Source: Arthrobacter castelli DSM 16402 (lineage in GTDB: Bacteria; Actinomycetota; Actinomycetes; Actinomycetales; Micrococcaceae). Taken from it: 64,000 nt of DNA. Position numbers and translations under genes: made by a program. Positions within the stretch are counted from its first letter, which is position 1, and each line of letters begins with the position of its first letter. A model generated the notes under the pieces. The model was not told the origin of the DNA. It saw nothing but the letters and a program-made list of their open reading frames with translations, and ran no database searches. Shown piece after piece: positions 53,305-62,181 of the stretch. The stretch lies in NCBI RefSeq assembly GCF_000430705.1, contig NZ_AUMN01000005.1, forward strand, positions 1 through 64,000, read 5' to 3'.

Positions 53305-54156
53305 GTGGCCATGGAGATATTTCATTCCATCGCCGAATACCAGCGGTGGCGCGAGGCCACGGTGGGATGGGTGGGCCATGTGGCCTCTCTCGGTTATCTC
53401 CACGAAGGGCATCGTTCCCTCATGCGCCGCGCACGCGCAGAGAACGAGCATGTGGTGGTTACCCTCTACGTAAATCCTCTGCAATTCGGTCCTGGTGAGG
53501 ATTTCGACACGTACCCTCGTGATCCGGCGAAGGACGAGTTCGTTTGTGCACAGGAGGATGTAAGTGCACTGCTTCTGTTGAGTGACGATGAAATGTATCC
53601 GCAGAATTTCGGTACCAAGGTGTCGCCGACCGTAGCCATGGACCGATACGAGGCGGCGTCCCGCCCGGAACACTTCGCGGGAGTAGCTACAGTGGTCACC
53701 AAGTTGTTCAACATCGTCCGCCCGCACCGGTCGTACTTCGGGTTGAAGGATTATCAGCAGGTACAGGTCGTTCGGCGGATAACGGAAGACCTTCACTTAA
53801 GTGTCGAAGTGGTCGGCGCACGGACCGAACGGGAGCCGGACGGGCTCGCCATGAGCAGCCGGAACGTCCGTCTCTCCGGGGCGGAGCGGAGCAGTGCGCC
53901 ACTGCTCTATCGGGCGCTGCAAGAGGTACAGGCCTGTCTCTCCTCCGGCGAACGGTCGGTTGCCGAGGGGCTGCGCCGGGGACGATCCGTGCTCGATGCG
54001 ACCAAAGTGCCGATGACTCTTGAGTACTTCGACGCCGTCGCCCCAATCACCCTGGATAGGGTCGACGAACTCAAAGATGGCGCAGTGGTGCTCGCAGCGC
54101 TGCGGCTGCCATCAGCCCGGTTAATCGACAACATCGTGCTTGAAGACGAAGCGTGA
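53305..54156 (+). CDS. Pantothenate synthetase-like ligase, divergent paralogue
   Basis: 283 residues with most PanC motifs: HEGH at residues 33-36, VNPLQFGPGEDF, ASRPEHFAGVATVVTKLFNIV, YFGLKDYQQ, and MSSRNVRLS (KMSKS equivalent). PanC joins pantoate and beta-alanine using ATP. The N-terminal substrate loop normally reading PTMG is ASLG (27-30) and the strand before it is altered, which may change specificity. No panB or panD is nearby, so it is probably not the housekeeping enzyme. The start may be GTG 53305 or ATG 53311. The surrounding DNA is less GC-rich than the window average, suggesting transfer. Confidence 0.75.
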   Translation: MAMEIFHSIAEYQRWREATVGWVGHVASLGYLHEGHRSLMRRARAENEHVVVTLYVNPLQFGPGEDFDTYPRDPAKDEFVCAQEDVSALLLLSDDEMYPQNFGTKVSPTVAMDRYEAASRPEHFAGVATVVTKLFNIVRPHRSYFGLKDYQQVQVVRRITEDLHLSVEVVGARTEREPDGLAMSSRNVRLSGAERSSAPLLYRALQEVQACLSSGERSVAEGLRRGRSVLDATKVPMTLEYFDAVAPITLDRVDELKDGAVVLAALRLPSARLIDNIVLEDEA

Positions 54157-54458: not shown

Positions 54459-56003
54459 TCAATTGCCAATGTGCCGCTGAAGCGCAGCGGCGAATTCCGC
54501 TGCGGCCTGGTCGGGGTAGGCGGCCGCGGCGACGAATCCGTCCGGCCGGACCAGCAGCACCTTCCCGCCGGTCAGGCCATTGGCCGGCGCGGCGGGGAAC
54601 TGGCGTACGTCGACGTCGAGTTCGTCCCGCAGCGACCGCAACCGGTCCTCGGCGACCTCCCCGTACACGTGCGCCATCCACGCGGCGGCCTTCAACGATT
54701 CGAAGTTCTGCCCGGTCCAGGGCAGCCGCCGCCCCACAATCCGGTCCCGCTGTCCCTGCGCACGTTCACGCGCCGACTCGTCCATCCAGTAATGGATCCG
54801 CACCTGGGCCAGGTACTCAAACATCCGCGAGCTGCCGGACAGCCTGGGAATGATCCGCAGCAGCACCGGCGCCGCGATCCGCGGCAGGAACCTCCGCACC
54901 GCCCGCAGTACCGGATTATTGGAGGTGACAGCGGCAAACAGCCGGTCGGTGGTGTTGGTCAGCCGCAGCGCCACCGGGCGGCGTTCAGCCTCATAGCGTT
55001 GAAGGTACGACGGCGGCGCCTCGCCTTTGAGCACGGCACCGAGCTTGAAGGCCAGATTGTGCGAGTCCTGCAATCCGGTGTTCATGCCCTGGGCGCCGAC
55101 CGGCGAATGGACGTGGCCGGCGTCTCCGGCCAGCAGCACCGGACCGTCGGTAAACTGCGCAGCCACCCGGTGATGCAAGCGGTAAGTGGAAAACCACGAC
55201 GTCGAAGCATAGGTCACGCCGAAGACCCGCTGCAGCATCGGTCGGATGGACGACTCGGCGACATCGTCGGCTGGATCGTCCGATCCATGAGGAACCACGC
55301 CCAGCAACCGGTTGTGCCCGTCGCTTCCCATCGGGAACGTGAGCAGGAAGAATTTCCGGCCGAACCGGAGGTTGATCGAGGTGGGGACCAGCCCTTCGAC
55401 CCCCGCGGCGTCGGCCACGAAGAAGGTGTGCTCGTTGGTGCGGCCCTCAAAGTCGATACCACGCAGCTTGCGCACCACCGACGACGGTCCATCCGTTCCG
55501 ACGCAGTAACGCGACCGGATCGTCACTTCCCCGTCCGGGCCCTGCAGCGTGACAGTCACCCGGCTGCCGCCGTCGTCCGCTGTCTCCTGGTCCAGGTCCT
55601 GAAGCCGATGCTGCCACAGCACCGCACCACTGAGCCGCTGCAAGTTCGAGTACAGCAACTTCTCGTTGCGGCTCTGCTCCAGGATGTACAAGTGGGGATA
55701 GGGCGAGACACCGGAGCCGATATTGGCGAACCGGACGAAGCCGAATGCCTTGTCTTGATAGCCAGGGGCGACACCTTGGGCGATATAGGCCTCGTCCAGC
55801 ACCTGGTCCGCGACGCCCAGCTGGTCGTAGATCTCCATGGTCCGCGCCTGCACCCCGAGCGCACGCGACTCCCGGGTGGGGCCGGACTTGCCGTCGACCA
55901 GGATGGCGTCGACGCCGAGCTTCGCCAGCCAGTTGGCCAGCATCAGCCCGGTGGGGCCGGCGCCCACAATCAGAACATCGGTGGTCCTTTCAACTGCCGG
56001 CAT
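54459..56003 (-). CDS. FAD-dependent aromatic monooxygenase (PheA/TfdB/MhpA-like)
   Basis: 514 residues of the class A flavoprotein hydroxylase family. FAD-binding starts with TDVLIVGAGPTGLMLANWLAKLG, the DG motif region is YCVGTDGPSSVVRK (near 170-180), and the GD motif is GPVLLAGDAGHVHSPVGAQGM. It uses NAD(P)H and O2 to hydroxylate an aromatic or polyketide-like ring; the substrate is not predictable. The start at 56003 is set by GGAGG five bases upstream, and the frame beyond it overlaps the GerW-like gene. It follows that gene on the same strand by 34 bp. Confidence 0.85.
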   Translation of the reverse strand: MPAVERTTDVLIVGAGPTGLMLANWLAKLGVDAILVDGKSGPTRESRALGVQARTMEIYDQLGVADQVLDEAYIAQGVAPGYQDKAFGFVRFANIGSGVSPYPHLYILEQSRNEKLLYSNLQRLSGAVLWQHRLQDLDQETADDGGSRVTVTLQGPDGEVTIRSRYCVGTDGPSSVVRKLRGIDFEGRTNEHTFFVADAAGVEGLVPTSINLRFGRKFFLLTFPMGSDGHNRLLGVVPHGSDDPADDVAESSIRPMLQRVFGVTYASTSWFSTYRLHHRVAAQFTDGPVLLAGDAGHVHSPVGAQGMNTGLQDSHNLAFKLGAVLKGEAPPSYLQRYEAERRPVALRLTNTTDRLFAAVTSNNPVLRAVRRFLPRIAAPVLLRIIPRLSGSSRMFEYLAQVRIHYWMDESARERAQGQRDRIVGRRLPWTGQNFESLKAAAWMAHVYGEVAEDRLRSLRDELDVDVRQFPAAPANGLTGGKVLLVRPDGFVAAAAYPDQAAAEFAAALQRHIGN

Positions 56004-56037
56004 GGCAACCTCCTTTTCGTGCGCTTCGATTCCAAGG

Positions 56038-56419: not shown

Positions 56420-57121
56420 CTATTTCAACAGCGCGACGTCTGAGACGAGTTCGATATGCGATTGCATGGCATCGGCGGCCTGCTGCGGGTCCTGCGCGCG
56501 GATGGCCTCGGCAATGGTGCGGTGCGAGGCCAGAGACTGCTCCGGGCGGTTGGGCTGGCCGAGCGATTCCAGCCGGGTTTCGAGGACCATCTCGGCGATA
56601 AATGCCATCAGCTGTTCCAGCACCGACGAGTGCGCCGCCGCGGTGACCGCTTGGTGGAACAATTCGTCGCCGTGGGCGCCCTTGTCCCCGGAGCTGACTT
56701 CCGCTGCCATGGCCTCGATCGCCGCATCGATGGCGTCCATGTCCGCGTCGGTGCGCCGGGCCGCGGCCAGCGTAGCGAGCTTAACTTCCAGGGTGCTGCG
56801 GGCTTCGACGATGTCCGGCAGCCGGTTGCTGTGTTCGCGCAGCCCCTTGATCACCGGGGCAATGCTGGGCCGGTACACGAGTACCGCGCCGGTGCCGTGC
56901 TGCACGTCGATGACGCCGAGCACTTCCAGGGCGACCAGCGCCTGGGCCAGCGTGGCACGGGAGACACCCAGCTGCTCTGCCAGTTCGCGTTCGGCGGGCA
57001 ATACGTCGCCCGGTCCGAGTTGGCGTGCCTCAATATAGCCGAGCAGCTGTTCGACAAGTTGTTCATACAATCGGGGGCGCGGCACGCGGGTGAACGGGCC
57101 CGAGGCTGATGATTCACGCAT
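56420..57121 (-). CDS. FadR/GntR-family regulator with FCD domain
   Basis: 233 residues. The winged helix covers about 15-75 (ARQLGPGDVLPAERELAEQLGVSRATLAQAL), followed by an FCD all-helical ligand domain with metal-type His and Asp residues (ELFHQAV, SHRTIAEAIRAQD). It is divergent from the MatC-like carrier operon at 57279 and is probably its regulator, binding a carboxylate or dicarboxylate. The start at 57121 has GGAGG six bases upstream; the open frame to 57685 is a shadow of the carrier gene. Confidence 0.9.
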   Translation of the reverse strand: MRESSASGPFTRVPRPRLYEQLVEQLLGYIEARQLGPGDVLPAERELAEQLGVSRATLAQALVALEVLGVIDVQHGTGAVLVYRPSIAPVIKGLREHSNRLPDIVEARSTLEVKLATLAAARRTDADMDAIDAAIEAMAAEVSSGDKGAHGDELFHQAVTAAAHSSVLEQLMAFIAEMVLETRLESLGQPNRPEQSLASHRTIAEAIRAQDPQQAADAMQSHIELVSDVALLK

Positions 57122-57194: not shown

Positions 57195-57227
57195 TTGACA
57201 AGGAGACCTAGTGTGCAGGAGGCTAGG
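57195..57227 (+). promoter_or_regulatory. Candidate promoter/operator of the carrier operon
   Basis: TTGACA at 57195-57200 is a good -35 box; the -10 is not clear. CCTAG (57207-57211) and CTAGG (57223-57227) form an 11-bp-spaced dyad inside the expected promoter, a plausible site for the divergent FadR-type regulator. Confidence 0.4.
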
Positions 57228-57278
57228 CCACTGGACCTGTTAGCCCAATCACAAGCACGCCGGGTGTAAGGAGAATTC

Positions 57279-58652
57279 ATGTCGGCCCCTGTTCTATCCA
57301 TCATCGTGTTGGCGGTGATGTTCCTGCTCGCCACGTTCCTGCCTATCAATATGGGTGCGCTGGCGTTTGTGGGGGCATTCTTCCTCGGCGTCGTCTTCCT
57401 TGGCATGGAGGCCGACGCCGTTCTGGCCAACTTCCCCGGCGGGCTGTTCCTGACGCTCGTCGGTGTCACGTATCTATTCGCTATCGCGCAGAACAACGGC
57501 ACCATTGACCTGCTGATCCAGGGAGCATTGCGGCTGGTCCGCAACCGGGTGGCAATGATCCCGTGGATCATGTTCACCATCACCGCGGCAATCACCGCCG
57601 TCGGCGCGCTGGGCCCGGCCGCCGTCGCCATCATGGCCCCCATCGCCCTGAGCTTCGCAGCCAAGCACAAGATCAACCCGCTCATGATGGGGATGATGGT
57701 GGTGCACGGCGCGCAGGCGGGCGGTTTCTCGCCGATCGCCGTCTATGGCGTGATTGTCAATGGGATCGTCTCCGACACCGGATTCGATTACAGCCCGCTG
57801 GCGCTGTTTTTGACCAGCCTGATCTTCAACTTCCTGATCGCACTGACTCTCTTCCTGGTCCTCGGCGGACGCAAGCTCATCTCCGGCAAGGTCGGACACT
57901 TCGTCGAGCAGGCGGCCGAGGCGCGGATGAAAGCCAGCGTCGGCCACCGGATCAGCGGCAGCGATGCCGCCGGCTCCGGATCCGAAGCCGGCGGGCCGAA
58001 CGGTACGGCGGGAGGCTCCGGCACCGGCGCAGCGCCGGCGAAGACCCGCGAGGACATCATCTCGCAGGTGGCCACGGTTCTCGGGCTGATCGCCCTGGCG
58101 GTCCTGGCGCTCGGGTTCAAGATCGACGTCGGCTTCGTCGCCATCACCATTGCAGTGATCCTGGCGCTGGTCTCGCCGAAGGCACAGCACGGCGCGGTCA
58201 ACAAGATCAGCTGGTCGACCGTGCTGTTGATCTGCGGGATGCTGACCTTCGTCGGCGTGCTGCAGGAAGCAGGGACCATTGACTACGTATCGGACGCTGT
58301 ATCCCGGTTGGGTATGCCTATGCTCGCGGCGCTGCTGATCTGCTACATCGGCGCCGTCGTTTCGGCGTTCGCCTCCTCCACGGCGATCCTGGCCGCGCTG
58401 ATTCCGCTGGCCATCCCGTTCCTCGAATCGGGGGAAGTCGGCGCCGTGGGCGTGATCTGCGCGCTGGCCGTGGCATCGACCATCGTCGATGTGTCCCCCT
58501 TCTCCACGAACGGTGCGCTGGTGCTGGCCAATGCGCCGGAGGGCACCAACCGGGACCGGTTCTACAAGCAGATCCTCGGCTATGGCGCCATCGTGGTGGT
58601 CGCCGGACCGCCCATCGCCTGGCTGACGCTGGTGGTGCCGGGATGGCTGTAG
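57279..58652 (+). CDS. MatC-like dicarboxylate carrier
   Basis: 457 residues with about 12 transmembrane helices. The N-terminal LATFLPINMGALAFVGAFFLG and the sequence up to VTYLFAIAQNNGTIDLLI follow the MatC N-terminal family (malonate/dicarboxylate carriers). A Gly/Ser/Ala-rich cytoplasmic loop lies at about 230-255. The C-terminal half contains SPFSTNGALVLANA, similar to DASS-type transporters. It is the first gene of a three-gene operon with a CoA-transferase and a carboxyltransferase-like enzyme, so the cargo is probably malonate or a related dicarboxylate. The RBS is AAGGAG. Confidence 0.8.
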   Translation: MSAPVLSIIVLAVMFLLATFLPINMGALAFVGAFFLGVVFLGMEADAVLANFPGGLFLTLVGVTYLFAIAQNNGTIDLLIQGALRLVRNRVAMIPWIMFTITAAITAVGALGPAAVAIMAPIALSFAAKHKINPLMMGMMVVHGAQAGGFSPIAVYGVIVNGIVSDTGFDYSPLALFLTSLIFNFLIALTLFLVLGGRKLISGKVGHFVEQAAEARMKASVGHRISGSDAAGSGSEAGGPNGTAGGSGTGAAPAKTREDIISQVATVLGLIALAVLALGFKIDVGFVAITIAVILALVSPKAQHGAVNKISWSTVLLICGMLTFVGVLQEAGTIDYVSDAVSRLGMPMLAALLICYIGAVVSAFASSTAILAALIPLAIPFLESGEVGAVGVICALAVASTIVDVSPFSTNGALVLANAPEGTNRDRFYKQILGYGAIVVVAGPPIAWLTLVVPGWL

Positions 58653-58730
58653 CTGCCACCTGGCCCGGCTGCGGGTCCCTGCGGCGCTATTGACTCCGGC
58701 CGCCCGAGCCGACGCGAAGTCCGTACTGAA

Positions 58731-59948
58731 ATGAGGAACATGGAACAAGAAACAGCATCGCAGAACGCCGGACCGCTCGGCGGCTACCTCGTGGTGGACC
58801 TGAGTCGGGCGCTGGCGGGGCCGCATGCCGGGATGATGCTCGGCGACCTGGGTGCTCGGGTGATCAAGGTGGAGAATCCGCAGTCCGGCGACGATACCCG
58901 CGGCTGGGGGCCGCCGTTCGTGGGCCCGGACGAGGATCCGCAGGCGACCTATTTCCTGTCCTGCAACAGGAACAAGGAATCGATCGCCATCGACCTGAAG
59001 AGCGACGGCGGCCAGGCCGAGCTGGCTGAGTTGATCCGGCGTGCCGATGTGGTGGTGGAGAACTTCCGGCCCGGTGTGCTGGACCGGCTGGGGTTTTCGG
59101 CGGCTCAGATGCAGGAACTCAACCCGGCGCTGGTGATTCTGTCCATCACCGGGTTTGGCCATGACGGGCCGGAATCCTCCCGCAGTGGCTACGACCAGAT
59201 TGTCCAGGGCGAGGCAGGGTTGATGTCGCTGACCGGCTCGGGGCCGGACGATCCGCAGCGCGTCGGGGTGCCGATCGCGGACCTGCTGTCCGGAATGTAC
59301 GGCGCGTTCGGGTGCCTGTCCGCCTTGCTCGAGCGCGAACGCACCGGCAAGGGGCAGGTGGTGCGGACCTCGCTGCTGGCCGCGCTGGTGGGCGTGCACG
59401 CATTCCAGGGCACCCGCTCCACGGTGGCCGGCGAAGTCCCGCAGGCCCAAGGCAACCACCATCCCTCGATCGCCCCGTACGGGCTGTTCGCCTGTGCCGG
59501 AGGCAAAGTGCAGATCAGCGTGGGCAGCGAGCGGCTCTGGACGCGCTTCGCCGAAGGCTTCGGCATCGATGCCACCCGTGAGGAGCTGGCGACCAACGCG
59601 CAGCGGGTGGTCAACCGGGACAAACTCATCGCCGAGGTGGAGGCAGCCTTCTCCGGCTACGGCCCCGAGGACCTGCTGGCCAGGCTGAACGAGATGGGGA
59701 TCCCGGCGGGCAAGGTCCGGTCGCTGGACGAGGTCTATGACTGGGACCAGGTCCGCTCCCAAGGCTTGCTGGTCGACGTCGACCACGACCTGCTGGGCAA
59801 TGTCACCCTGCCCGGGCCGCCGCTGAGATTCTTCAACGCCGACGACGAGGAGGAGACCACCTACCGCTCCCATTCCGCCCCGCCAGGGCTGGACCAGGAC
59901 GGCGAGCGCATCCGGCAGTGGCTCGCAGCGGGGGAAGCGGGGGAGTAA
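58731..59948 (+). CDS. Family III CoA-transferase (CaiB/BaiF)
   Basis: 405 residues. The family III core is visible: LVVDLSRALAGPHAGMMLGDLGARVIKVENP, ENFRPGVLDRLG, the catalytic Asp in SGYDQIVQGEAG near residue 155, and GNHHPSIAPYGLF. It moves CoA between a donor acyl-CoA and a carboxylate. Between a dicarboxylate carrier and an AccDA-like enzyme, it would activate the imported acid to its CoA thioester (inference). The start could be ATG 58731 or ATG 58740. Confidence 0.85.
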   Translation: MRNMEQETASQNAGPLGGYLVVDLSRALAGPHAGMMLGDLGARVIKVENPQSGDDTRGWGPPFVGPDEDPQATYFLSCNRNKESIAIDLKSDGGQAELAELIRRADVVVENFRPGVLDRLGFSAAQMQELNPALVILSITGFGHDGPESSRSGYDQIVQGEAGLMSLTGSGPDDPQRVGVPIADLLSGMYGAFGCLSALLERERTGKGQVVRTSLLAALVGVHAFQGTRSTVAGEVPQAQGNHHPSIAPYGLFACAGGKVQISVGSERLWTRFAEGFGIDATREELATNAQRVVNRDKLIAEVEAAFSGYGPEDLLARLNEMGIPAGKVRSLDEVYDWDQVRSQGLLVDVDHDLLGNVTLPGPPLRFFNADDEEETTYRSHSAPPGLDQDGERIRQWLAAGEAGE

Positions 59949-59950
59949 CA

Positions 59951-61516
59951 ATGAGCACCACGCAACGGACCCGCCGGCTGGCCGCCGCGGAGCTGGTGGC
60001 CACGGTGCTGGACGACGGCTCGTTCAGTTCCTGGGATGAGCCGACGCGCGGGCCGGAGACCAGCGCCGGGTACCGCGAGGAGCTGGCCGCGGCGACCGCC
60101 AAGTCGGGGCAGGACGAATCGGTCATCACCGGCGAGGGGCTGATCCGCGGGAGGCGGGTCGCGCTGATCGTCAGCGAATTTTCCTTCCTGGCCGGCTCCA
60201 TCGGCCAGGCCGCAGCGGACCGCATTGTCGCCGCCGTCGACCGCGCCACCGCGGCAGGATTGCCGCTGCTGGCCGGACCCGCCTCCGGAGGAACCCGGAT
60301 GCAGGAAGGCACGCTGGCGTTCCTGTCCATGGTGCGGATCACGGCGGCAGTGCGGGCCCACCGGCAGGCCGGACTGCCGTACCTGGTCTACCTGCGCCAC
60401 CCGACCACCGGGGGAGTGATGGCCTCCTGGGGGTCGCTGGGGCACATGACCGTTGCCGAGCCCGGGGCGCTGCTGGGTTTCCTCGGGCCGCGGGTGTACG
60501 AGGCGATCCACGGTGAACCGTTTCCGCCCAATGTGCAGGTCGCCGAGAACCTCTTCGACAAAGGGCTGATCGACGCCGTCGTCCCCGCCGCGCAACTGCC
60601 GGAGATTATCGACCGGGCGCTGGCCATCCTCACTCCTGAACCGGCCGGCCCGGTGCCGTCGCCGGCCACCCTGGACGTGGTGCCCTCGGCCGTCGACGCC
60701 TGGACGTCGGTGGAGATCTCACGCAACCCCCGCCGCCCGGACCTGCGCAGCCTGCTCAAGTACGGGGCCGACGACGCGCTGCCGCTCAACGGCACCGGAC
60801 AGGGCGAAAAGGATCCGGGACTGCTGCTGGCACTGGCGAAGTTCGGCGGACAATCCTGCGTCGTGCTCGGGCACCAGCGACCGGCCGGGGCGTCCGACGA
60901 CGGCATGGGCCCGGCCTCGCTGCGGGAAGCCCGGCGGGGCATGCGGCTGGCCGAAGAGTTGGCGCTGCCGTTGCTGGCGGTGATCGATACCGCCGGGGCG
61001 GCGATGTCGCCCGAGGCGGAGGAAGGCGGACTGGCCGGCGAAATAGCCAGGTCACTGCACGACCTGATCGGGCTGCAGTCGCCGACCGTGTCCGTGCTGT
61101 TCGGCCAGGGCGCCGGGGGCGGGGCATTGGCGCTGCTGCCCGCGGACCGGACCATCGCCGCCCACCACGGCTGGCTGTCCCCGCTTCCCCCGGAAGGCGC
61201 CAGCGCGATCGTCCACCGCACGGTCGAACATGCCCCCGCTATGTCCGCCGCCCAGGGCATCAATGCCGCGTCGCTGCATGCCAACGGCGTCGTGGACCAC
61301 CTGGTCGATGAGCAACCCGATGCCGCTGCCGAGGCCAAGGCGTTCTGCCGGCGCATGGGCACGGCGATTGAGTACGAATTGGCGTCCCTGGCGACGCTGC
61401 CACCCGGCGGCCGGGTGGAACGCCGGGCCAACCGGTATCGGCACTTGGGGCGGCCGGCGCGGAAGAATGCTCAGGAGAATCCTCAGGAGCGGGACTGGTT
61501 CGCAGCCGCTCCGTAG
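59951..61516 (+). CDS. Fused AccD-AccA-type carboxyltransferase
   Basis: 521 residues with both carboxyltransferase halves in one chain. The AccD-like half (about 1-235) has PASGGTRMQEGTLAFLSM, HPTTGGVMASW and EPGALLGFLGPRVYEA; the usual zinc finger is absent. The AccA-like half (about 245-500) has NPRRPDLRSLL, EARRGMRLAEE, GQGAGGGALALLPADRT and a PEGASAIVHRT loop. No biotin carboxylase or biotin carrier gene lies in the window. It may be a biotin-dependent carboxylase component or, given the operon, act like the MdcD/MdcE subunits of malonate decarboxylase. The start ATG 59951 has GGAG five bases upstream. Confidence 0.8.
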   Translation: MSTTQRTRRLAAAELVATVLDDGSFSSWDEPTRGPETSAGYREELAAATAKSGQDESVITGEGLIRGRRVALIVSEFSFLAGSIGQAAADRIVAAVDRATAAGLPLLAGPASGGTRMQEGTLAFLSMVRITAAVRAHRQAGLPYLVYLRHPTTGGVMASWGSLGHMTVAEPGALLGFLGPRVYEAIHGEPFPPNVQVAENLFDKGLIDAVVPAAQLPEIIDRALAILTPEPAGPVPSPATLDVVPSAVDAWTSVEISRNPRRPDLRSLLKYGADDALPLNGTGQGEKDPGLLLALAKFGGQSCVVLGHQRPAGASDDGMGPASLREARRGMRLAEELALPLLAVIDTAGAAMSPEAEEGGLAGEIARSLHDLIGLQSPTVSVLFGQGAGGGALALLPADRTIAAHHGWLSPLPPEGASAIVHRTVEHAPAMSAAQGINAASLHANGVVDHLVDEQPDAAAEAKAFCRRMGTAIEYELASLATLPPGGRVERRANRYRHLGRPARKNAQENPQERDWFAAAP

Positions 61517-62094
61517 CGCAGTCCGTCGATGATGACGCCGATCATCCGCTGGCTGTACGCGGCCGGCTCGTCGGCGTCGGTCATGCACAGGCTCGCCACG
61601 GCATTCAACAGGTCCCTGGAGCCGATGTCGGCCCGGACCTCGCCGTCGTCGGCCGCTGCATTCAGCAGTGAGTCGAGAGCGGGACCAAGCCGGGCCATGA
61701 AGTAGTCAGGCAGTTCGTCGAACGCCGGGTCGCCGGAGTGCAGGGCCGAGGCGAGGCCCCGTTTGGCTGCGATGAACTGGGTGTATCGGTGGAGCCACTT
61801 CTCCAATGCTGTTCCCGGTTCGTGTTCGGCAGCCAGTGGCCCCGCGGCGTCTGCACAGGCGTCCACCTCGTGCCGGAAGACGGCCTTGACCAGGTCCGAG
61901 CGCTGCGGGAAGTGCCGGTAGAGCGTTCCGACGCCGACGCCGGCCAGATCGGTGATCTCCTTCGCGGGCGCATCCACGCCTGAGGAGCCGAATACAGTCT
62001 TGGCCGCGTCCAGCAGAGAGTCGATATTGCGCTGAGCGTCGGCACGGCGCCGGCGCGGCACTGATTCGCCTGTTGGCGAGATGTTCCCAGTCAC
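61483..62094 (-). CDS. TetR-family regulator
   Basis: 203 residues. The N-terminal HTH is at about 25-70 (ITDLAGVGVGTLYRHFPQRSDLV), followed by a ligand domain with a C-terminal region of the SbtR type. The stop lies 34 bp inside the converging carboxyltransferase gene. The start is GTG 62094 with TGGAG seven bases upstream; the longer frame to 62133 overlaps the first operator dyad. It is divergent from the aldo/keto reductase and probably represses it. Confidence 0.85.
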   Translation of the reverse strand: MTGNISPTGESVPRRRRADAQRNIDSLLDAAKTVFGSSGVDAPAKEITDLAGVGVGTLYRHFPQRSDLVKAVFRHEVDACADAAGPLAAEHEPGTALEKWLHRYTQFIAAKRGLASALHSGDPAFDELPDYFMARLGPALDSLLNAAADDGEVRADIGSRDLLNAVASLCMTDADEPAAYSQRMIGVIIDGLRYGAAANQSRS

Positions 62095-62118
62095 GACACT
62101 CCATCCACTGATTTTTCC

Positions 62119-62181
62119 GGAATCACTTTCCACCTATTGTTTTCCGGAACGCCTTTCCGTATAGTTCTGGAATAGCGTTCC
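62119..62181. promoter_or_regulatory. Three GGAA-N5-TTCC dyads, candidate TetR operators
   Basis: GGAATCACTTTCC (62119-62131), GGAACGCCTTTCC (62146-62158) and GGAATAGCGTTCC (62169-62181) share one architecture, each preceded by C-(C/T). Their centres are 27 and 23 bp apart. They lie between the divergent TetR and aldo/keto reductase genes. Confidence 0.75.

What the first reader, a model, noticed from the sequence alone, without database searches (positions are those of the whole stretch)
57279..61516. Carrier, CoA-transferase and fused AccDA without biotin partners: possible acyl-CoA-based malonate-type decarboxylation system
Seen: MatC-like carrier, family III CoA-transferase and a single-chain AccD+AccA enzyme in one operon under a FadR-type regulator, with no biotin carboxylase or carrier protein nearby. 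Known: MdcD/MdcE of malonate decarboxylase are carboxyltransferase homologues that decarboxylate malonyl-ACP without biotin. Inferred: the CoA-transferase could load malonate (or a related dicarboxylate) onto CoA from acetyl-CoA, and the AccDA-like protein decarboxylate it back to acetyl-CoA. This would give a catalytic cycle with no ACP and no biotin, a variant I cannot name from known systems.
Basis: partly seen in the sequence, partly recalled or inferred. Interest (0 to 1): 0.68.

Follow-up and report, generated by a model that had tools for sequence, protein, structure and literature searches.

The report
Biotin-free malonate decarboxylation operon, CoA-transferase type
A soil actinobacterium carries a four-gene operon that most likely imports malonate, attaches it to coenzyme A with a CoA-transferase, and decarboxylates it with a repurposed part of a fatty-acid-synthesis enzyme that no longer uses biotin; an orphan mycobacterial protein, AccD3, appears to belong to the same family.

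Summary
A GntR/FCD regulator, MatC-type carrier, family III CoA-transferase (CoAT) and fused AccD+AccA-like protein form a block found whole in 69 of 76 testable Arthrobacter/Cryobacterium loci. In streptomycete-type genomes the same block has a ligase matching PDB 3nyq, malonyl-CoA ligase, where CoAT stands here. Of 81 fused AccDA loci, 12 have a biotin carboxylase gene within 6 kb and all 12 keep the zinc ribbon; the other 69, the window's class, have none, and 72 of 73 rows of that class lack the full ribbon. Best reading: a malonyl-CoA decarboxylase without biotin or ACP, fed by a CoA-transferase. No enzyme was assayed; substrate, direction and CoA donor are inferred. Against it: four biotin carboxylases elsewhere in the genome, no CoAT or malonate ligase near 48 of the 69 loci, and a tree placing this clade nearer to true carboxylases than to the streptomycete one. 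Prior art: one paper calls actinobacterial CT homologues malonyl-CoA decarboxylases without an assay that I saw; another lists the S. coelicolor protein as a carboxylase. My searches found no CoA-transferase version. The mycobacterial relative looks like AccD3, of unknown function.

The parts
56420..57121 (-). GntR/FCD regulator, divergent from the operon
   Evidence: FCD 5.1e-27 and GntR 5.5e-16 on 56420-57085; ATG at 57121 read by eye from the sequence printed; regulators 45-83% identical beside AccDA or MatC in related loci
57195..57230 (+). Conserved promoter/operator: TTGACA at 57195 and AGGCTAGGCCA at 57220-57230, one mismatch from the TGGC-N3-GCCA repeat seen in streptomycete-type and mycobacterial-type spacers
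   Evidence: Pattern in 66 of 69 GntR-MatC spacers (68 loci plus the window; L056, L060 and L083 lack it), 0 in base shuffles; the pattern was read off the same sequences. TGGC-N3-GCCA twice in each of L188, L189 and L190, beside MatC; strict pattern absent from the window
57279..58652 (+). MatC-type dicarboxylate carrier, inferred malonate importer
   Evidence: PF07158 6.9e-58, PF03600 3.9e-32
58731..59948 (+). Family III CoA-transferase, inferred malonate CoA-transferase; Asp184 aligns with an Asp of E. coli Frc that I count as Asp169 (catalytic role recalled)
   Evidence: PF02515 1.2e-112; best NCBIfam model succinate--glutarate CoA-transferase, 315.4 bits, below its 750 cut-off; alignment with YfdE and Frc
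59951..61516 (+). Fused AccD+AccA-like protein without zinc ribbon, inferred biotin-independent malonyl-CoA decarboxylase (ORF opens at GTG 59918)
   Evidence: PF01039 3.1e-46, PF03255 2e-45; class B signature

Best explanation
A malonate catabolic operon. MatC imports malonate (inferred). The family III CoA-transferase moves CoA from acetyl-CoA or succinyl-CoA to malonate, probably through Asp184 (inferred from family chemistry). The AccDA-like protein binds malonyl-CoA in its AccD-like half, whose Gly-Gly motif (residues 165-166 of the 532-aa reading) is kept, and decarboxylates it to acetyl-CoA and CO2 without biotin; its AccA-like half has lost residues that all biotin-carboxylase-linked relatives share. 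If acetyl-CoA is the donor the cycle is catalytic in CoA: malonate gives acetate and CO2, with no ATP and no ACP. The GntR regulator controls the operon through a conserved operator. Shown: genes, conserved linkage, swap of the activating enzyme, loss of carboxylase signatures, conserved promoter. Inferred: substrate, direction, donor, inducer.
For: Block of four whole in 69 of 76 loci. CoAT-AccDA pair at 43-47% AccDA identity in L136, L137, L143, L146, L147 and on 3 of 4 plasmids examined, out of 71 records matched. In L188, L189 and L190 GntR, MatC, a ligase and AccDA stand together; the ligase matches PDB 3nyq 'Malonyl-CoA Ligase' at 980.7 bits and is 73-85% identical in six other loci and 66% in L127, whose AccDA lies in the window's own clade. 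In L137 the carrier genes are TctA, TctB, TctC instead of MatC. 12 of 12 fused AccDA with an adjacent biotin carboxylase have the zinc ribbon; 0 of the 69 others has a biotin carboxylase within 6 kb (Fisher 1.4e-14). AccA Asn131, Cys233, Gln177: 12 of 12 class A, 0 of 73 class B (columns picked from the same alignment). No MCD, no MdcD at E <= 1e-40 in this genome; its best MatB-like ligase fails both relevant models (394.7 of 558 and 296.7 of 575 bits). In L209 a ligase that passes the malonyl-CoA synthase model lies beside an MCD. Published: mycobacterial AccD3 bound no carboxylase partner (PMC4347857, passages); MdcD-MdcE, a distant CT homologue, decarboxylates malonyl-CoA in vitro, weakly (PMC5534430, passages).
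Against: Nothing was assayed. Four biotin carboxylases in the genome could act in trans. 48 of the 69 class B loci have neither CoAT nor the MatB-type ligase within 6 kb (some loci are cut by contig ends), and 3 of 76 close loci (L040, L072, L093) have AccDA alone. On the tree the CoAT label is no more clustered than shuffled labels (12 changes, shuffled mean 13.1, 102 of 500 as low), class B is not one clade, and the window's clade is sister to the true-carboxylase class, not to the streptomycete ligase-linked clade (quick method, SH-aLRT only); the shared losses may thus be old or convergent. The AccA half keeps its Gly-Gly motif (401-402), and the drop in identity is only slightly larger in the AccA half (CoAT-linked 35.9/30.3%, ligase-linked 35.2/33.5%). 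L222 of class B keeps all four zinc cysteines. MatC_N carriers also stand with PrpF genes. G171 has ligase-MCD but also an unlinked class B AccDA, L204. Malonate feeding did not raise flavonoid yield in S. albus (PMC5447737, passages). The biotin pocket was not mapped; the structure model is poor (pLDDT 64).
Confidence: 0.7

Rival explanations
1. The AccDA-like protein is a genuine carboxyltransferase that works in trans with a biotin carboxylase/carrier encoded elsewhere; the operon supplies malonyl-CoA both from malonate and from acetyl-CoA.
For: Four biotin carboxylase genes in the genome; window's clade is sister to the carboxylase class in the tree; Gly-Gly motifs of both halves kept; PMC10302056 (passage) lists SCO2445/44 as a carboxylase pair.
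Against: No biotin carboxylase within 6 kb of any of 69 class B loci against 12 of 12 for class A; zinc ribbon and AccA-half residues lost. PMC10302056 counts SCO2444 as a carboxylase subunit, but SCO2444 is, as I recall, the ligase MatB of PDB 3nyq. Mycobacterial AccD3 bound no partner (PMC4347857) and its deletion in M. smegmatis left fatty and mycolic acids unchanged (PMC5311964).
Confidence: 0.13
2. Same chemistry on another acid: a substituted malonate such as methylmalonate, or another dicarboxylate, is loaded and decarboxylated.
For: The CoA-transferase's best named model is succinate--glutarate CoA-transferase, below cut-off; several distant loci place hydantoinase A/B genes beside CoAT-AccDA; plasmid pUSK13_1 places the pair in an aromatic catabolic cluster.
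Against: The ligase and MatC neighbours point to malonate first; beta-decarboxylation of this kind needs a malonyl-type thioester (established chemistry).
Confidence: 0.14
3. CoA-transferase and AccDA serve different pathways and only share a promoter.
For: 48 of 69 class B loci have no CoAT or MatB-type neighbour; CoAT linkage is not clustered on the tree.
Against: Adjacent in 73 of 76 close loci; within 6 kb in 13 of 69 wider loci, 9 of these with a gap under 100 bp; together on 3 of 4 plasmids examined.
Confidence: 0.03

Closest known systems
Rhizobial MatABC malonate pathway
   Same: GntR-type regulator (MatR, recalled), MatC carrier, CoA-level activation of malonate, decarboxylation of malonyl-CoA
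   Different: MatB ligase replaced by a family III CoA-transferase; MatA (MCD, PF05292, GNAT-like fold, PMC3701320 passages) replaced by an AccDA-like protein; no MCD in this genome
Streptomycete-type GntR-MatC-MatB-AccDA block (SCO2444/SCO2445 type; locus names from the papers and recall)
   Same: Same regulator, carrier and AccDA families; similar operator in the three MatC-containing loci
   Different: Ligase instead of CoA-transferase; AccDA only 33-36% identical to the window's and in a separate clade
Biotin-independent malonate decarboxylase MdcABCDE
   Same: A CT-like decarboxylase acting without biotin
   Different: Uses an ACP with a special prosthetic group and MdcA (PMC5534430); MdcDE is a distant, long branch; no MdcD here at E <= 1e-40
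Heteromeric acetyl-CoA carboxylase carboxyltransferase AccD/AccA
   Same: Same ancestry and Gly-Gly motifs, fused in one chain
   Different: No zinc ribbon, several AccA-half residues lost, no biotin carboxylase neighbour
Oxalate Frc/Oxc and E. coli ScpB/ScpC (logic; chemistry recalled, genes named)
   Same: CoA-transferase plus CoA-ester decarboxylase
   Different: Decarboxylases of other families; other substrates
Mycobacterial AccD3
   Same: Apparent orthologue: 57-60% identity in nine Mycobacterium-like loci; in L125 the order AccDA, enoyl-CoA hydratase, two beta-lactamase-fold genes, P-type ATPase, which I recall as that around Rv0904c
   Different: No CoAT or MatC found beside it; function reported as unknown. 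No named AccD3 sequence was compared

Membership tests
Biotin-dependent acetyl-CoA carboxylase CT (AccD/AccA) | N-terminal four-cysteine zinc ribbon of AccD | tested here: not met
   None in the window protein; 4 of 4 Cys in 12 of 12 class A rows; full set in 1 of 73 class B rows, L222
Biotin-dependent acetyl-CoA carboxylase CT (AccD/AccA) | AccA-half residues shared by biotin-carboxylase-linked members (Asn131, Cys233, Gln177) | tested here: not met
   12 of 12 class A, 0 of 73 class B. Columns were picked from this alignment; their role in biotin binding is not established. Cruder motif tests: R[NVA]FG 10 of 12 against 1 of 69, GAYxG 10 of 12 against 0, PEGC 11 of 12 against 0
Biotin-dependent acetyl-CoA carboxylase CT (AccD/AccA) | Gly-Gly motifs of both halves | tested here: met
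   Gly165-166 and Gly401-402 align with E. coli AccD 204-205 and AccA 206-207; oxyanion role recalled
Biotin-dependent acetyl-CoA carboxylase CT (AccD/AccA) | Biotin carboxylase/carrier partner | tested here: inconclusive
   None within 6 kb in 69 class B loci; four biotin carboxylases elsewhere in the genome
Malonate decarboxylase MDC (MdcD/MdcE) | Match to MdcD/MdcE models above cut-off | tested here: not met
   TIGR03133 42.7 bits against 278.15; TIGR03134 24.1 against 237.15
Malonate decarboxylase MDC (MdcD/MdcE) | ACP and MdcA partners | tested here: inconclusive
   None among the operon genes scanned; no MdcD in the genome at E <= 1e-40; MdcA and MdcC were not searched for
Malonyl-CoA decarboxylase MCD (PF05292) | MCD domain | tested here: not met
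   Pfam scan of the operon; no PF05292 in the genome at E <= 0.001
Family III CoA-transferase | CoA_transf_3 domain and active-site Asp | tested here: met
   1.2e-112; Asp184 aligned with the Frc Asp counted as 169
MatC carrier | MatC_N domain | tested here: met
   6.9e-58
Malonyl-CoA decarboxylase by function | Malonyl-CoA to acetyl-CoA plus CO2 without biotin | not testable with these tools
   Needs an assay

The most novel reading that the evidence does not exclude
A widespread actinobacterial family of AccDA-like proteins, including mycobacterial AccD3, is a biotin-free malonyl-CoA decarboxylase family that shares ancestry with acetyl-CoA carboxylase's own carboxyltransferase and takes the place of MCD in these bacteria; it is fed either by MatB or, as here, by a family III malonate CoA-transferase in an ATP-free, ACP-free cycle.
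Probability: 0.4. Interest if true: 0.75.

Novelty: new variant of a known kind. Interest (0 to 1): 0.6.

Why it matters
It would give a further genetic form of malonate catabolism, help explain how actinobacteria without MCD could use malonate (MCD found in 4 of 396 phylum genomes), correct the annotation of many 'acetyl-CoA carboxylase' genes, and offer a testable function for the orphan AccD3. It bears on malonyl-CoA supply in polyketide hosts, where a neighbour of MatB may drain malonyl-CoA rather than make it.

Tried and rejected
Origin from MdcD/MdcE: rejected; AccD/AccA models score far higher and MdcDE is a long branch outside (its exact place is unsure). Recycling of acetate by a neighbouring synthetase: the 668-aa gene downstream in L123 is an ABC-2 membrane protein. 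Clean MCD-for-AccDA swap in G171: weakened, since G171 also has an unlinked class B AccDA, L204. Structure model (pLDDT 64, pTM 0.71): too weak for pocket analysis; its fold search listed carboxyltransferase structures in general. MCD loci L210-L212 showed no match to my malonate queries. TGGC-N3-GCCA: of 23 loci scanned, copies beside MatC only in L188, L189, L190 and L123; single or double copies elsewhere in L199, L143, L146, L141 and L194; none in 14 loci, among them the ligase-linked L154, L200, L201 and L127; none in the window in strict form. MatB absence: the streptomycete-type MatB itself fails the 'malonyl-CoA synthase' model (359.6 of 558) and passes PRK07787 (750.3 of 575); the window genome's best ligase fails both (394.7 and 296.7), but only the best of 12 matches was scanned.

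Limits of method: genes in fetched loci were called by a home-made GC-frame script that missed some AccDA genes (L118, L126, L134, L151); tblastn then found them. L124 gave a 28-residue frame and its gene-caller protein was used instead. L188's ligase was filtered out because it overlaps AccDA by 8 bases, and is counted. The 81 loci are the listed matches that span both halves, without G000 and G008; weaker, unlisted matches (for example G193) were not fetched, and unfused AccD hits were not examined. The set is weighted towards the window's clade. Some loci are cut by contig ends, so neighbour counts are lower bounds. The tree used 86 of 89 rows; L144, L221 and L251 were dropped as fragments. 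Papers were open PMC ones; PMC6491548 and PMC5534430 were seen as one section each plus passages, the others as passages or listings.
Full report
What is there. The window's genome is of the Micrococcaceae by kinship: its same-family genome G008 has a contig of 434374 bases, the length of the Arthrobacter ipis contig of L041. The operon region holds GntR/FCD 56420-57121 (-), MatC carrier 57279-58652 (+), family III CoA-transferase 58731-59948 (+) and a fused AccD+AccA-like protein from ATG 59951 to 61516 (+). The last three run in one direction; the last two are two bases apart. A TetR gene converges on the end of AccDA.

Is it more than chance? Of 80 fetched Arthrobacter/Cryobacterium-type loci, 76 have at least 3.7 kb upstream. 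In these CoAT is adjacent in 73, MatC present in 70, GntR in 71, and all four in 69. The seven exceptions are L040, L072 and L093 (AccDA alone), L077 (no MatC, no GntR), L064 and L105 (no full MatC) and L109 (no GntR). A promoter/operator block TTGAC...GGCTAG[GT]CCA is in 66 of 69 GntR-MatC spacers and in no base shuffle; the pattern was read off these same sequences. In distant loci the CoAT-AccDA pair survives at 43-47% AccDA identity with gaps under 100 bases (L136, L137, L143, L146, L147). In another deep branch a 54-56% identical CoAT lies 221 bases (L245), 2.3 kb (L236) and 2.9 kb (L152, other strand) away.

The activating enzyme is swapped. In three streptomycete-type loci (L188, L189, L190) GntR, MatC, an acyl-CoA ligase and AccDA stand together. 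The ligase matches PDB 3nyq, named Malonyl-CoA Ligase, at 980.7 bits. The ligase-AccDA pair without MatC in the fetched stretch occurs in L154, L199, L200 and L201. In L127, whose AccDA belongs to the window's own 22-row clade, the ligase is divergent from AccDA and a MatC fragment lies at the contig end. Two unrelated ways of making malonyl-CoA beside the same protein family point to malonyl-CoA as its substrate. The carrier can differ too: L137 has TctA, TctB and TctC. Four plasmid loci were examined of 71 records matched. Three carry CoAT and AccDA side by side: Paenarthrobacter pYJN5-2 after an amidohydrolase gene, Rhodococcus pUSK13_1 inside an aromatic catabolic cluster, and Arthrobacter StoSoilB13-2, where AccDA matches in two frames and may be broken. 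The Tsukamurella plasmid has AccDA without CoAT.

Carboxylase or decarboxylase? Among 81 fused AccDA loci, 12 (class A) have a biotin carboxylase within 6 kb. All 12 have the four zinc cysteines and AccA Asn131, Cys233 and Gln177, and they group with E. coli AccD+AccA. The other 69 (class B) have no biotin carboxylase within 6 kb. Of 73 class B rows (69 plus the window, L045, L040 and L093) none has Asn131, Cys233 or Gln177, and one, L222, has the full zinc set. The three AccA columns were picked from the alignment because they differ; the zinc ribbon and the gene neighbour are independent criteria. CoAT lies near 13 of the 69 and the MatB-type ligase near 8 (7 plus L188). The remaining 48 have neither, so the linkage is common but not general. 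Identity to E. coli is about 50% in both halves for class A, 35.9/30.3% (AccD half/AccA half) for CoAT-linked, 35.2/33.5% for ligase-linked rows and 35.9/28.3% for the window. A weaker AccA-type half is what PMC5534430 describes for MdcE, which does not bind biotin (passages), but here the difference between halves is small, and the Gly-Gly motif of the AccA half is kept.

The tree (quick method, SH-aLRT only). The window lies in a 33-row clade (100) of class B that is sister to class A plus E. coli (97); the streptomycete ligase-linked clade (100) and the L152/L236/L245 clade (100) branch elsewhere. Class B is therefore not one clade as rooted, and the losses may be old or may have happened more than once. 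The ligase and biotin carboxylase labels are clustered on the tree (0 of 500 shuffles as low); the CoAT label is not (102 of 500). I read this as frequent gain and loss of the neighbour; it could also mean looser coupling.

What else could do the job in this genome? No MCD (PF05292 in 4 of 396 phylum genomes, none in G000), no MdcD at E <= 1e-40 (4 of 396, none in G000). The best of 12 ligase matches fails both the malonyl-CoA synthase model and the model that the streptomycete-type MatB passes; the other 11 were not scanned. The genome does have four biotin carboxylases and two other carboxyltransferases, so a partner in trans is not excluded.

Regulation. In L188, L189 and L190 the only copies of TGGC-N3-GCCA in 18 kb are two beside MatC, on the regulator side; the mycobacterial-type block L123 has TGGCTAGGCCA twice. 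The window has AGGCTAGGCCA, one mismatch away. The ligase-linked loci without MatC do not have the repeat at the ligase gene. With 50-51% identical regulators this suggests one regulator family, and perhaps one kind of inducer, for the MatC-containing ligase and CoA-transferase versions.

Prior work. PMC6491548 (section 5 read) states that CT group IV includes malonyl-CoA decarboxylases of malonate assimilation and calls SACE_3856 an orthologue of MatA of S. coelicolor; the citation is to rhizobial MatA, and I saw no assay. PMC10302056 (passage) lists SCO2445/44 as a carboxylase. In S. albus, malonate feeding did not raise flavonoids, and its authors suspect that the mat-like genes there do something else (PMC5447737, passages). 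Malonate CoA-transferase is a known activity, EC 2.8.3.3 (PMC8307300, passage). So the decarboxylase idea is in print for the streptomycete type, unproven as far as I saw and contradicted. My searches (listings and abstract starts, few papers opened) did not turn up a CoA-transferase-AccDA malonate system.

AccD3. The window's clade includes the AccDA of nine Mycobacterium-like loci. In L125 it stands next to an enoyl-CoA hydratase, two beta-lactamase-fold genes and a P-type ATPase, the order around Rv0904c/AccD3 as I recall it; PMC5501465 (passages) says that Rv0904c and the enoyl-CoA hydratase gene Rv0905 are in one cluster. PMC4347857 (passages) reports that AccD3 interacted with no partner tested and doubts that it is a carboxylase subunit. 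PMC5311964 (passages) reports no lipid change in the M. smegmatis deletion, an unknown function, and a second homologue, MSMEG_2169. Genes called accD3 in C. glutamicum have a mycolate role (PMC5501465); whether that is the same gene was not checked. None of the 14 sampled genomes of that family has MCD. I recall a malonyl-CoA decarboxylase purified from mycobacteria in 1978 (Kim and Kolattukudy is cited for bacterial enzymes in PMC3701320, passage; not read); AccD3 is a candidate for its gene.

Verdict. A malonate operon of a new variant: CoA-transferase activation plus an AccDA-type, biotin-free decarboxylase. Confidence 0.70 for the mechanism; CoA donor and exact substrate are open.

Noticed in passing
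L136, L143, L146, L147, L152, L236: Hydantoinase A and/or B genes lie within about 6 kb of CoAT and AccDA in distant actinobacteria, perhaps an upstream amide-splitting step that yields malonate or a relative.
   Followed up: partly
L222 (and the truncated L220): A fused AccDA of class B that keeps the four zinc cysteines (L220 two of them) but lacks the AccA-half residues; a possible intermediate.
   Followed up: partly
L072 and L093 (Cryobacterium): AccDA 75-76% identical to the window's but without CoAT, MatC or GntR, next to a luciferase-like monooxygenase gene (Pfam run on L093).
   Followed up: no
L191, L194, L195: Other MatC_N carriers share two neighbour gene clusters, identified in L194 as PrpF and LysR, with no AccDA beside them, so MatC_N alone is not a malonate marker.
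   Followed up: partly
L256 (plasmid pYJN5-2, typed conjugative): Amidase, amidohydrolase, CoAT and AccDA in a stretch; the CoAT is not in the PLSDB gene table but is 73% identical to the window's.
   Followed up: partly
L259:6001-7570 (Arthrobacter StoSoilB13-2): The AccDA beside CoAT matches in two pieces in different frames, possibly a broken copy or a sequencing error.
   Followed up: no
G074 (L123, L129, L216): One Mycobacterium-like genome holds the GntR-MatC-CoAT-AccDA block, a separate AccD3-type copy, and an MdcD match.
   Followed up: partly
L209 (G171): Malonyl-CoA synthase gene beside an MCD gene with a divergent, only 27% identical GntR gene; the same genome has an unlinked class B AccDA, L204.
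   Followed up: partly
window 61483-62133: TetR-type regulator convergent with AccDA, overlapping its 3' end by 34 bases.
   Followed up: no
window 53305-54156 and 54459-56006: Pantoate--beta-alanine ligase gene and an FAD-dependent monooxygenase gene upstream of the operon.
   Followed up: no
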